A DNA stretch of 64,000 nt from Proteus faecis. GTDB lineage: Bacteria > Pseudomonadota > Gammaproteobacteria > Enterobacterales > Enterobacteriaceae. A model generated the notes under the pieces. The model saw only the letters and a list, made by a program, of their open reading frames with translations. It searched no databases and was not told where the DNA came from. This document shows positions 54,654 through 57,272 of the stretch, piece by piece. The translations under genes and the position numbers were made by a program. Location: contig NZ_PENZ01000034.1 in the NCBI RefSeq assembly GCF_003144395.1, positions 434,001 to 498,000 of the forward strand, read 5' to 3'. Every line of letters starts with the position of its first letter. The stretch's first letter is position 1.

Positions 54654-55469
54654 ATGGCAAAGACACCAAAGAGCAAAGTTGCTACTCAAAAAGAAATAAC
54701 ACAAAAAAAACAACACGCTCTTTTACAAAAGAATAAGCGTCAGCAATATAATGATCCTATCTTTTCGTCCTTTATCGAAACCACATCAGCAAAACGCCTT
54801 CCATTAACGCCATTACAACGAGGTGTTCAACTCTTTTTTTCATTATTTGACTATGCCACACAACTTTTATATATCGCGTTTATTATTACCGTTTGGTGGT
54901 TTCCTGAACATTTCTCAGTTCAAACAATTTATAATCTAACCGTTCTATTTTTATTTGAATTTATTCTCGTGCATTCTGGTGTTTTTATGGCTGCATTTGC
55001 TCGTACTAAACTGGTTTTTGCTCTTATTCCCTTTTATGGAATATTTGCACTTATTATCAATAGTATGATTATGGGTGATGAAAACCTGATTATTTGGCTT
55101 TATGCTGTGATTGTTGCTAATCGAATTATCAGTGGTTACCAAGTGAAAACTAAAGAAGAAATGGGGAAGAACTTATTCTATTCTGCACTATTAGTTTTAA
55201 ATTTTATGCTATGCCTTTTCTCTGTCATGATTTTTAAATTCCTAGTCCCTTATGGCGGATTAACGCCCCAATATTTACATGAAATTGACTATCTCCATTT
55301 AATCCCACAACACAGTGATTATTTTAATGTTCCACATATTGGTATGGCTTATGGCACTCTATTTTATGGTATTCCTTTAGCCTGCATTACCTATATTAAT
55401 ATATCATCAATATATAAACATATAATGTTCAGAATAAAAGCTAGAGCAATAAAAACCACACACAGATAA
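54654..55469 (+). CDS. Unrecognised inner-membrane protein
   Basis: A 271-residue protein I cannot assign. The first 50 residues are polar and lysine/glutamine-rich, probably cytoplasmic. About six hydrophobic segments follow, near residues 57-82, 93-113, 118-138, 140-158, 172-197 and 230-255. The C terminus is basic. It lies between cmoB and an ABC-F gene, a place where E. coli has torYZ. The ribosome site is weak, and an eight-C run lies 32 bases before the start. Continuous reading frame and plausible membrane topology support a real gene. Confidence 0.65.
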   Translation: MAKTPKSKVATQKEITQKKQHALLQKNKRQQYNDPIFSSFIETTSAKRLPLTPLQRGVQLFFSLFDYATQLLYIAFIITVWWFPEHFSVQTIYNLTVLFLFEFILVHSGVFMAAFARTKLVFALIPFYGIFALIINSMIMGDENLIIWLYAVIVANRIISGYQVKTKEEMGKNLFYSALLVLNFMLCLFSVMIFKFLVPYGGLTPQYLHEIDYLHLIPQHSDYFNVPHIGMAYGTLFYGIPLACITYINISSIYKHIMFRIKARAIKTTHR

Positions 55470-55501
55470 TCTTATTCAGCCCTTGTTGTTCATCTTTATT
55501 C

Positions 55502-55573
55502 ATGTTTAAATACGCATGCTATTTCCACCAATTATTTCTCTTTTTAAGAAGGCACTTCCCTACGATGAATTAA
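55502..55573 (+). CDS. Putative leader peptide of the ABC-F gene
   Basis: A 23-codon ORF beginning MFKYACYFHQLFLFLRR and ending HFPTMN, with TAA at 55571-55573, two bases before the 5' arm of the first leader hairpin. It is rich in aromatic and basic residues like known stalling peptides. No good Shine-Dalgarno precedes the ATG. A second possibility is the tiny in-frame ATG-AAT-TAA at 55565, which has AAGAAGG twelve bases upstream. Confidence 0.35.
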   Translation: MFKYACYFHQLFLFLRRHFPTMN

Positions 55574-55575
55574 AT

Positions 55576-55700
55576 TCTGCCAGAAAATTTTTCAAATACC
55601 TTTTTCGGTATTCACTTTTCTGTTACTGGCAGACAATAATTTACTTCGTCGCATCTAAAAAAAGATCTCGGCTGTCTGCCACCTATTTCGCTTAGGAGGT
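55576..55700 (+). promoter_or_regulatory. Candidate translational attenuator of the ABC-F gene
   Basis: Three competing pairings can be read. Hairpin 1: TCTGCCAG (55576-55583) with CTGGCAGA (55626-55633), enclosing AATACC/GGTATT. Hairpin 2: GGCAGACA (55628-55635) with TGTCTGCC (55673-55680), which shares bases with hairpin 1. Hairpin 3: CCACCT (55679-55684) with AGGAGG (55694-55699), masking the Shine-Dalgarno of the ABC-F gene except for one A-A mismatch. Hairpins 1 and 3 can coexist (off state); hairpin 2 excludes both (on state). Confidence 0.5.
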
Positions 55701-55706
55701 CTTATT

Positions 55707-57272
55707 ATGACAATAGCCTGCCACTTTTCACAATTGACTATCGAATTTAATCAGCAAAGTCTTTTTCCACCTTTAACTCGTGCATTGTCTTGTCAGCAAA
55801 ATGCATTAATAGGCCATAACGGTAAAGGAAAGTCTGTACTATTAAGATTATTAGCACAAAAAATATTACCAACCACTGGCCAAGTTAATTGGAATATCCC
55901 CTTTGTTCACGTTGAACAATTAACTCGATTACAAGGTAATACACTTGCTCAAGCATTAGACATTCATGAAATTTATCAAGTATTTCAACGTGTTGATGCC
56001 GGCATTGCCACATTAGAAGATATTGAGTTACTCGATGGCAAATGGCAATTTCCTGTTATGTGGCAAAATATATTAAATTCAGCACAACTTCCTGTCGCAT
56101 TAGATACTCCGATTGCACATCTCAGCGGTGGAGAACAAACACGTTTAGCGCTATGTCGTGCTTTTTTATGTGAAAATAGTTTTTTACTCTTAGATGAACC
56201 AGATAACCATCTTGATTATCAGGGACAACAATGGCTAATAAAACAATTAGCTCAGCACAAAGCTGGCTCTCTTATTGTTAGTCATAATCGAAACTTGCTC
56301 TCGTATGCTGATACTATTTTTGAATTAAGTGAGAAAGGTTTATTTGAATATGGTGGAAATTATACTTTATATGAGACACAAAAACGTGCAGAAATAGCAT
56401 CGTTGGAAGCAGCAAGTGATCGACTAAACAGCCAAATTAAAAATGAAAAACGCCAGCAACAATCGACATTACAAAAAGCAGCACAACGGAAACGACAAGG
56501 CGAATCAATCAGGAAAAGTGGATCTCAGTGCTTACTTTTATTAGATATGCAAACAAATCGGGCTGAACAACGACAATCTGCAGTTGCTAAACGGCATCAG
56601 CGTATAATTGATGATATGCAATCTCAAAAGCAAAGCATCGATGAAGAAAAAGCACATGTTCATCAGCAGAAAATGGTATTAAATTATCAAAGTGATGGTC
56701 ATCGTTTAAATGTATTTGTTAATAATCTTCAGCTTCCATATGGTTATCAGCACCCTATTTCATTTTCAGCTTATGGGAATGAGCATTGGCATATTCAAGG
56801 TAAAAATGGATGTGGAAAGTCAACATTATTAAAATGTTTGATCAAACAATTTGCACCACTTTCTGGTGAATTTCGTCTCAACAAAGACTTTTGTTATCTT
56901 GATCAACATCTGACTTTACTTGATAAAACATTGCCGGTTGCACAAGCACTACACCAATATCAACCCGCGATTTCTATCGAGCAATGGCGAACACGTCTTG
57001 GAATGTTAAGAATTAGAAGTGATAAATCGTTACTGCCACTTGAAAAACTAAGTGGTGGTGAGCAATTAAAAGCAACATTATTGGCTTTAACACATAGCCC
57101 AAAACCACCTGCGATATTATTACTTGATGAGCCAGATAATCACCTTGATATAGAATCCAAACAACTATTGGAAGATCTACTCGTTGAATATCAAGGCACA
57201 TTATTATTAGTTTCGCATGATGAAACCTTTGTTGAACGCTGTGGTATTACGCACACGCTGGTATTAGGCTAG
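55707..57272 (+). CDS. ABC-F family ATPase (two ATP-binding cassettes, no membrane domain)
   Basis: A 521-residue protein with two cassettes. Walker A motifs are GHNGKGKS (about residues 37-44) and GKNGCGKST (about 368-376). Signatures are HLSGGEQTRLALCRAFL and KLSGGEQLKATLLAL, Walker B LLLDEPDNHLD in both halves. The charged helical linker (about 225-335, including QIKNEKRQQQSTLQKAAQRKRQG) is typical of ABC-F. These proteins act on the ribosome; some give antibiotic resistance, others assist translation. It does not match Uup, YheS, EttA or YbiT by eye. AGGAGGT lies six bases before the ATG. Confidence 0.85.
   Translation: MTIACHFSQLTIEFNQQSLFPPLTRALSCQQNALIGHNGKGKSVLLRLLAQKILPTTGQVNWNIPFVHVEQLTRLQGNTLAQALDIHEIYQVFQRVDAGIATLEDIELLDGKWQFPVMWQNILNSAQLPVALDTPIAHLSGGEQTRLALCRAFLCENSFLLLDEPDNHLDYQGQQWLIKQLAQHKAGSLIVSHNRNLLSYADTIFELSEKGLFEYGGNYTLYETQKRAEIASLEAASDRLNSQIKNEKRQQQSTLQKAAQRKRQGESIRKSGSQCLLLLDMQTNRAEQRQSAVAKRHQRIIDDMQSQKQSIDEEKAHVHQQKMVLNYQSDGHRLNVFVNNLQLPYGYQHPISFSAYGNEHWHIQGKNGCGKSTLLKCLIKQFAPLSGEFRLNKDFCYLDQHLTLLDKTLPVAQALHQYQPAISIEQWRTRLGMLRIRSDKSLLPLEKLSGGEQLKATLLALTHSPKPPAILLLDEPDNHLDIESKQLLEDLLVEYQGTLLLVSHDETFVERCGITHTLVLG

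What the first reader, a model, noticed from the sequence alone, without database searches (positions are those of the whole stretch)
55502..55709. Ribosome-sensing attenuator upstream of an ABC-F gene
Seen directly: a 23-codon ORF ends two bases before hairpin 1 (55576-55583 with 55626-55633). Hairpin 2 (55628-55635 with 55673-55680) uses six of the same bases and so excludes hairpin 1. Hairpin 3 (55679-55684 with 55694-55699) masks the AGGAGG of the ABC-F gene and shares two bases with hairpin 2. The implied logic is that a ribosome held at the end of the leader covers the 5' arm of hairpin 1, hairpin 2 forms, and the Shine-Dalgarno is freed. Known background: several resistance ABC-F genes (for example vmlR and msrD) are induced through leader peptides that sense ribosome-targeting antibiotics. 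Inference: this chromosomal ABC-F may be an inducible ribosome-protection system of Proteus. The weak ribosome site of the leader ORF is the main caveat.
Basis: partly seen in the sequence, partly recalled or inferred. Interest (0 to 1): 0.82.

Follow-up and report, generated by a model that had tools for sequence, protein, structure and literature searches.

The report
Two-codon leader switch for ABC-F gene
Upstream of a ribosome-acting ATPase gene in a Proteus chromosome lies an RNA switch built around one of the smallest possible reading frames, start codon, one codon, stop; its conservation in distant relatives suggests that it turns the gene on when ribosomes are held at the first step of protein synthesis.

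Summary
The reading frame it chose is not. The 23-codon ORF occurs in 1 of 20 Proteus genomes, lacks a Shine-Dalgarno (SD), and probably starts upstream of the transcript. The conserved sensor is its last two codons plus stop: ATG-AAT-TAA (Met-Asn, 55565-55573), with its own SD at 55546-55552.

Equivalent frames of 2-6 codons (MN, MK, MI, MNN, MRN, MNKHD and others) were assigned before 103 of 120 distinct homologous ABC-F genes. They tend to have SDs, and show natural GTG, TGA and TAG replacements. In the two groups I aligned, the frame sits in the 5' side of hairpin 1. The same competing arms recur with different letters, including fourfold coordinated changes in Photobacterium.

Best reading: a translational attenuator. 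A ribosome held on the tiny frame opens hairpin 1, its 3' arm captures the arm that masks the gene's SD, and the ABC-F is made. The peptide is too short for tunnel sensing, so the likely inducers are first-peptide-bond or initiation inhibitors (inferred). Bacillus vmlR and Clostridioides cplR work similarly but also use terminators. I found no Gram-negative counterpart in the papers searched. Copies with similar leaders occur on resistance plasmids.

The parts
55546..55552 (+). Shine-Dalgarno (AAGAAGG) of the two-codon leader ORF, 12 nt before its ATG
   Evidence: sequence; anti-SD energy -5.0 kcal/mol; mean -5.7 over 103 leader ORFs against -1.3 at random leader positions
55565..55573 (+). 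Two-codon leader ORF, ATG AAT TAA (fMet-Asn-stop): the sensor
   Evidence: ATG and TAA invariant in 26 of 26 leaders of A3, codon 2 AAC or AAT; equivalent 2-6 codon ORFs assigned in 103 of 120 upstream regions
55563..55585 (+). Hairpin 1, 5' arm; holds the leader ORF
   Evidence: fold; 6 of 28 pairs of the hairpin-1 structure with changes on both sides
55623..55651 (+). Hairpin 1, 3' arm; contains the 5' arm of hairpin 2
55627..55635 (+). Hairpin 2 (release form), 5' arm
   Evidence: 97.9% of cells paired in A3, wobble changes only; covaries in the Vibrio-type group
55673..55681 (+). Hairpin 2, 3' arm
55679..55685 (+). Hairpin 3, anti-SD arm
   Evidence: 2 of 6 pairs with changes on both sides, covariation score above all 500 shuffles
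55693..55699 (+). Hairpin 3, 3' arm, containing the AGGAGG SD of the ABC-F gene (55694-55699)
55707..57272 (+). ABC-F ATPase gene, 521 aa, the regulated gene
   Evidence: best NCBIfam model NF000355 'ribosomal protection-like ABC-F', 323.7 bits, below its cut-off of 380
55502..55573 (+).
   Evidence: 1 of 20 Proteus genomes; no SD
55505..55511 (+). Probable -10 region (TTTAAAT) by alignment with TATAAT in other Proteus leaders; weak match in this strain
   Evidence: TATAAT 53-59 nt before the leader ORF in 8 of 20 Proteus leaders; the consensus scan found no promoter here

Best explanation
It is a translational attenuator whose sensor is a two-codon ORF. Default state: the leader ORF is translated quickly or not at all, hairpin 1 forms over it, and the downstream arm 55679-55685 pairs with the AGGAGG of the ABC-F gene, so little ABC-F is made. 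Induced state: a ribosome held with its P site on the AUG (or on codon 2 with UAA in the A site) covers about 15-18 nt downstream, which includes the start of the CUGCCAG arm (it begins at +13); hairpin 1 cannot form; its 3' arm pairs as hairpin 2 with 55673-55681, pulling away the outer part of the anti-SD arm, and the SD is exposed. Because only fMet or fMet-X is made, sensing cannot depend on the nascent chain in the tunnel; the natural inducers are predicted to be inhibitors of initiation or of the first peptide bond (pleuromutilins, lincosamides, streptogramin A; possibly tetracyclines or termination blockers). The ABC-F product would relieve that stall and close a feedback loop. Supported by sequence comparison: the ORF, its SD, the three helices and their competition. 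Inferred: ribosome arrest, inducer class, ABC-F function, feedback.
For: Leader ORF of 2-6 codons assigned in 103 of 120 distinct upstream regions, starts ATG 100 and GTG 3, stops TAA 85, TGA 17, TAG 1, SD energy at or below -4 in 89 of 103 against 13% of random positions. Count without that rule: ATG ORFs of 2-3 codons at -310 to -100 in 86 of 120 regions, 33.4 expected from dinucleotide shuffles. Same-locus complementarity beats the mean of swaps between loci: uORF arm with hairpin-1 3' arm in 42 of 45, 3' arm with pre-SD arm in 43 of 45, pre-SD arm with SD in 36 of 45. Covariation of hairpins 1 and 3 in Proteus and kin and of all three helices in the Vibrio-type group (hairpin 3 there rests on one pair). 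Fourfold coordinated change CCTGT/ACAGG/CCTGT/ACAGG to CCTGA/TCAGG/CCTGA/TCAGG in L099, L100 and L146. A simulated ribosome on the AUG lowers mean SD masking from 0.76 to 0.60; slid blocks average 0.76. ORF length follows the ABC-F tree. No intrinsic terminator found. Control of vmlR by a Met-Ile-Asn uORF lying in a bulge of its first hairpin is published (PMC9226507, passages).
Against: No expression, ribosome-profiling or drug data. In the folding test only 17 of 60 leaders fell by more than 0.3 and 2 rose by more than 0.3; by printed values 49 fell, 10 rose, 1 was unchanged; and in 23 of 60 at least one slid block lowered masking more than the block on the AUG did (counted from its rows). 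In this strain masking falls only from 0.88 to 0.60, and the core of hairpin 3 is compatible with hairpin 2. An earlier measure gave a smaller effect, SD unpaired 0.19 to 0.25 over 96 leaders. Hairpin 2 shows no two-sided changes within A3. In the swap test a median of 16, 16 and 30% of swapped partners paired at least as well. L110, L121 and L131 break the varying pair of hairpin 1. The SD to AUG spacing of 12 nt is long. 17 of 120 homologues have no assigned leader ORF. Leaders are related by descent, so swap and shuffle statistics are not independent trials.
Confidence: 0.78

Rival explanations
1. The 23-codon ORF is the sensor, a conventional leader peptide read to its end.
For: It exists in this window and ends two bases before the core of hairpin 1.
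Against: In-frame start in this position in 1 of 20 Proteus genomes, no SD, start codon at or upstream of the aligned -10 region.
Confidence: 0.03
2. An RNA-only switch (riboswitch, thermometer or protein-binding leader): ATG-AAY-TAA is a structural motif and is not translated.
For: The ORF lies in paired or bulged parts of a conserved hairpin; strong letter conservation within Proteus, Xenorhabdus and Providencia.
Against: Replacements follow coding rules across lineages (ATG/GTG, TAA/TGA/TAG, varied second codon), a conserved SD precedes it, and ORF length changes to 3, 5 and 6 codons. No Rfam family matches at gathering score.
Confidence: 0.08
3. A minigene that acts by coupling, ribosome loading or mRNA protection rather than by a hairpin switch, like the two-codon mg2 of axe-txe.
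For: Two-codon minigenes in leaders that raise downstream expression are published (PMC8708949, passages).
Against: Here the ORF ends 133 nt upstream of the gene, not 15 nt, and the intervening arms covary as competing helices.
Confidence: 0.06
4. Control is mainly through Rho: unstalled leaders are terminated because the gene is untranslated; the hairpins set SD access and transcription follows.
For: Published for topAI/toiL, which also responds to stalling at the start codon (PMC12121999, passages).
Against: Not testable here; it adds to the switch rather than replacing it.
Confidence: 0.05

Closest known systems
vmlR leader of Bacillus subtilis (uORF Met-Ile-Asn in a bulge of SL-1)
   Same: Ultrashort uORF with a single-stranded SD before the hairpin, ORF inside the first hairpin, initiation on the uORF required for induction; ABC-F gene (PMC9226507, passages)
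   Different: Gram-positive; includes an intrinsic terminator and RNA polymerase pausing; here no terminator was found and the ORF is one codon shorter
cplR (Met-Arg-Ile/Met), vmlR2 (MK[L/Q]) and lsaA (MAGN) leaders
   Same: Ultrashort uORFs of ABC-F genes, described as likely stalled by PLSA and nucleoside drugs with little context specificity (PMC10201436, passages and section 20)
   Different: Gram-positive; cplR carries a terminator hairpin that also masks the SD
msrD leader MsrDL
   Same: ABC-F gene regulated in response to a ribosome-bound drug (PMC10314930, start of abstract in the search listing)
   Different: Responds to macrolides; a longer leader peptide (recalled, not read here)
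toiL leader of E. coli topAI
   Same: Gram-negative translational attenuator induced by stalling at the start codon, for example by tetracycline and retapamulin (PMC12121999, passages)
   Different: Longer ORF (its first seven residues are conserved), toxin-antitoxin target, Rho involvement; not an ABC-F gene
Two-codon minigenes (axe-txe mg2, LEE1 ler)
   Same: Two-codon ORF in a leader that alters the next gene (PMC8708949, passages)
   Different: mg2 lies 15 nt from the main start codon; mRNA protection proposed; no competing hairpins mentioned in the passages seen

Membership tests
uORF-controlled attenuators of resistance ABC-F genes (vmlR/cplR kind) | Short uORF with SD in the leader of an ABC-F gene | tested here: met
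   assigned in 103 of 120 upstream regions; SD energies
uORF-controlled attenuators of resistance ABC-F genes (vmlR/cplR kind) | uORF overlaps a hairpin that competes with a hairpin blocking expression | tested here: met
   (by comparison of sequences, not by probing)
uORF-controlled attenuators of resistance ABC-F genes (vmlR/cplR kind) | Premature transcription termination at an intrinsic terminator | tested here: not met
   0 terminator-like sites in 55300-55800; hairpin 3 is not followed by a T run
uORF-controlled attenuators of resistance ABC-F genes (vmlR/cplR kind) | Induction by the cognate antibiotic through stalling on the uORF | not testable with these tools
   needs reporters, toeprints or profiling
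Antibiotic-resistance ABC-F proteins | Curated ribosomal protection model reached (NF000355 cut-off 380 bits) | tested here: not met
   323.7 bits for the window protein; 318.7-338.4 for five relatives; best or only model shown in each case but below the cut-off
Antibiotic-resistance ABC-F proteins | Nearest solved relatives are resistance rather than housekeeping ABC-Fs | tested here: inconclusive
   best two chains are YheS, followed by ExpZ and Lsa(A)
Antibiotic-resistance ABC-F proteins | Confers resistance by displacing drugs from the ribosome | not testable with these tools
Antibiotic-resistance ABC-F proteins | Accessory, patchy distribution and mobility, unlike housekeeping ABC-F | tested here: met
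   35 of 198 genomes of the family at E 1e-60 or better (counted from the rows), though 20 of 20 in the genus; homologues on plasmids beside erm(42), msr(E)/mph(E), tet(A)/floR
Rfam families | Match at gathering score | tested here: not met
   none in the window or in 20 relative loci
Two-codon minigenes of the mg2/ler kind | ORF close to and coupled with the main start codon | tested here: not met
   stop codon ends 133 nt before the gene

The most novel reading that the evidence does not exclude
A family-wide class of minimal translation sensors in Gammaproteobacteria: leader ORFs cut down to fMet plus one or two residues report any ribosome that fails to make or finish the first peptide bonds, independent of peptide sequence, and drive an unstudied ABC-F clade that rescues exactly that stall and so shuts its own switch. 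The same cassette, leader plus gene, has already moved onto resistance plasmids.
Probability: 0.45. Interest if true: 0.86.

Novelty: new variant of a known kind. Interest (0 to 1): 0.74.

Why it matters
It names a testable sensor at the lower size limit of a coding sequence and separates initiation-stage sensing from nascent-chain sensing, which longer leader peptides cannot do cleanly. It predicts that a widespread ABC-F clade of Gram-negative bacteria, some members of which sit on resistance plasmids, is inducible and acts on the ribosome at the first peptide bond. The gene tables I saw list no such ORF. In the papers I could search (PubMed Central open subset only, listings and passages) I saw no report of such leaders in Gram-negative ABC-F genes.

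Tried and rejected
23-codon ORF as sensor: rejected. 59-aa ORF 55516-55695 overlapping the leader: no family match, and in 16 of the other 19 Proteus leaders its frame meets a stop before the gene, at differing places, while in 3 it meets none. Rfam: two chance-level matches only. Transcription terminator: none found. Promoter in this strain: not found by consensus, inferred by alignment only.

Uninformative searches: (394 and 369 genomes) used strict E-values with few candidates scored per genome and found only the own gene; (RNA model, 229 genomes) found nothing and had no positive control. The same model hit 18 of 18 chosen genomes, but 15 of those 18 leaders had been used to build it, so only three (L123, L129, L147) are independent finds. 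Alignments A1 and A2 took minus-strand loci on the wrong strand; they were not used for counts and were replaced by A3. The first SD-accessibility measure gave a weak effect (0.19 to 0.25 unpaired), I think because the truncated 3' end pairs locally; the measure counts only pairing with upstream bases and was chosen; both are reported. The rule that named leader ORFs was written after seeing the sequences, and L102, L129 and six L123-type leaders were added later, so 95, and the later 103, of 120 are descriptive; the count free of that rule is.

Rows dropped: 129 upstream regions gave 120 distinct after nine duplicates; L132 had no assignable start; L049 is the second half of a split gene; L097 dropped for a weak SD; 16 of 61 representatives dropped because the ORF is too near the gene or the SD too weak; 14 Proteus near-copies left out of the tree, in which L129 and the L123 type still bear the label 'none'.

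Full report
What is there. Window 55546-57272 (+) carries, in order, an SD (AAGAAGG, 55546-55552), an ATG-AAT-TAA frame (55565-55573), a long hairpin, two further arms, an AGGAGG SD (55694-55699) and a 521-aa ABC-F gene (55707-57272). Hairpin 1 extends to 55563-55585 with 55623-55651.

The leader ORF. All 20 Proteus genomes searched hold the gene, split in one (G213), and all 20 leaders read ATG-AAC-TAA or ATG-AAT-TAA at 139-144 nt before it. The 23-codon frame is open from an ATG in this strain only; some other in-frame start upstream of the two-codon ATG occurs in 4 more of 20. Its ATG shows no SD pairing (+1.0 kcal/mol) whereas the two-codon ATG has -5.0. In 8 of 20 Proteus leaders a clear TATAAT lies 53-59 nt before the two-codon ATG, so the 23-codon start, 63 nt before it, is probably not in the transcript; in this strain the -10 is inferred by alignment (TTTAAAT).

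How far it goes. I read the upstream regions of 120 distinct homologous genes from family, genus and species-wide searches (the last kept its best 80 loci of more). Leader ORFs of 2 (40), 3 (49), 5 (6) or 6 (8) codons before the stop were assigned in 103 of 120: MN 29, MNN 27, MKY 6, MK 5 plus VK 2, MNKHD 5, MI 4, MDKHTC 4 and others. The assignment rule was made after looking; without it, 86 of 120 regions contain an ATG ORF of 2-3 codons at -310 to -100, against 33.4 expected. Start, stop and second codon vary as coding sequence does (GTG 3; TGA 17, TAG 1). SD strength is -5.7 on average against -1.3 at random positions. On the protein tree of 106 rows the two-codon type falls in one group of 27 rows with SH-aLRT 99, which includes one row without the ORF (L091); the 5-6 codon type forms one group; the four labels together need 8 changes against 54 in shuffles.

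The switch. In Vibrio-type leaders the motif reads TACGCC-N-ATG-AAC-AAC-TAA-ACCTGT ... ACAGGGTTAGTAGGCGTA ... CCCTGT-N-ACAGGAGG. The 5' arm CCTGT pairs with ACAGG (hairpin 1), ACAGGG pairs with the later CCCTGT (hairpin 2), and that same CCTGT masks ACAGGAGG (hairpin 3). In Photobacterium L099, L100 and L146 all four segments have changed together to CCTGA, TCAGG, CCTGA, TCAGG; L104 has the same except TCGGG at the SD; L110, L121 and L131 break the varying pair in hairpin 1. Counts on 26 leaders: hairpin 1 97.1% paired with 4 of 20 pairs changed on both sides, hairpin 2 92.9% with 4 of 12, hairpin 3 96.2% with 1 of 5; the covariation score exceeded all 500 shuffles for each, though for hairpin 3 the number of pairs changed on both sides did not (289 of 500 as high). 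Hairpin 2 in that group is therefore kept, but its covariation is silent.

Across groups the arms have different letters but the same relations. For 45 of 61 representatives with room for three segments, own-locus duplex energies beat the mean of swapped loci in 42, 43 and 36 of 45 for the three pairings, while a median of 16, 16 and 30% of single swaps did at least as well; the loci share ancestry, so the p values printed there overstate independence. Blocking 31 nt around the leader AUG in folding lowers mean SD masking from 0.76 to 0.60 over 60 representatives; blocks slid along the leader leave the mean at 0.76, yet in 23 of 60 some single slid block did more than the AUG block. Of the 60, 49 fell, 10 rose and 1 was unchanged by the printed values. 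In this strain the change is 0.88 to 0.60, partly because the inner four pairs of hairpin 3 survive. Enterobacteriaceae leaders with 5-6 codon ORFs lie only 84-87 nt from the gene, and there the end of the ORF itself appears to pair with the SD region (by eye), a simpler layout.

Dedicated element. A covariance model of the Vibrio-type hairpin 1 found one strong copy in 17 of 18 chosen genomes, a weak one in the 18th (E 0.003), and one extra weak hit in G952 (E 0.05). Fifteen of the 18 leaders had gone into the model, so the point is the near absence of further copies, not the hits themselves; three (L123, L129, L147) are independent. The window leader as DNA query finds convincing matches only at the orthologues in Proteus, Xenorhabdus, Providencia and G090. 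No Rfam family matches at gathering score.

The gene. The best NCBIfam model for the window protein and five relatives is the ribosomal protection-like ABC-F model, 318.7-338.4 bits, always below its cut-off of 380. The nearest solved structures by sequence are two YheS chains (a housekeeping ABC-F, recalled), then ExpZ (recalled as the VmlR type) and Lsa(A), so sequence alone does not settle its class. In the window's family the gene is patchy (35 of 198 genomes at E 1e-60 or better, counted). Homologues at that E-value occur on 338 records of the plasmid collection, a few of which are whole chromosomes filed there. An Acinetobacter copy with an ATG-AAG-TAA leader lies beside msr(E)/mph(E) and tet(39) and its leader is present at 100% over its length in 16 records. 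An Escherichia copy with an ATG-CGC-ATT-TAA leader lies near tet(A) and floR; the leader region is matched over at least 80% of its length in 134 records, and two variants about 90% identical keep the ORF and the ACCTGTC/GACAGGT arms unchanged. A third type lies near erm(42). This supports, but does not show, a resistance role.

Comparison with what is known. The vmlR leader has a Met-Ile-Asn uORF in a bulge of its first hairpin with the SD ahead of it; retapamulin and lincomycin are named as inducers, the section title says that only cognate drugs induce efficiently, initiation on the uORF is called essential, and the variants MDN, MDK and MRK from other Bacillus are competent (PMC9226507, passages). 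cplR, vmlR2 and lsaA have MR[I/M], MK[L/Q] and MAGN (PMC10201436, passages and section 20). Those are Gram-positive, and vmlR and cplR use terminators. toiL shows that start-codon stalling can drive a translational switch in E. coli (PMC12121999, passages). The present element works like vmlR without the terminator and with an even shorter frame; I file it as a new variant, not as a member of the terminator-based kind.

What is inferred. That ribosomes stall on the frame, which drugs do it, what the ABC-F does and that it feeds back are inferences from architecture and from the published analogues. About 15-18 nt of cover downstream of the P site is established knowledge, consistent with the +16 to +18 edges reported in PMC12121999.

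Noticed in passing
L048/L049 (genome G213, same genus): The orthologous ABC-F gene is split in one Proteus genome (two frames, one internal TAG) while its leader is kept.
   Followed up: no
L050; L051 and L052 (G210, G200, G214): Some Proteus genomes carry a second, distant ABC-F; L051 is identical in protein to genes on E. coli, Salmonella, Klebsiella and Proteus plasmids (23 records at 99% or more), in one case near erm(42) and an IS91-family transposase.
   Followed up: partly
L192 4825-5010; L194 4790-5000: Plasmid-borne ABC-F homologues carry ultrashort leader ORFs (MK type, leader at 100% in 16 Acinetobacter records; MRI type, leader region matched in 134 records).
   Followed up: partly
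L010-L030 group, about 86 nt before the gene: Enterobacteriaceae homologues use 5-6 codon ORFs (MNKHD, MDKHTC) or MRN/MRH/MRY with a different, more compact fold in which the ORF end seems to pair with the SD region directly.
   Followed up: partly
L106, L108, L115, L116, L118, L122, L125, L130, L134, L136, L008, L009: A Xenorhabdus ABC-F clade has no recognised leader ORF although two other Xenorhabdus (L081, L084) have the Proteus-type leader.
   Followed up: no
L129 2414-2988 (Shewanella atlantica): Leader ORF MNS lies 550 nt from the gene; the leader appears to hold an inserted repeat (TATACCAGTCGGTAT and related ends).
   Followed up: no
window 54654-55469 (+): 271-aa ORF between cmoB and the ABC-F leader with no NCBIfam or Pfam match.
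   Followed up: no
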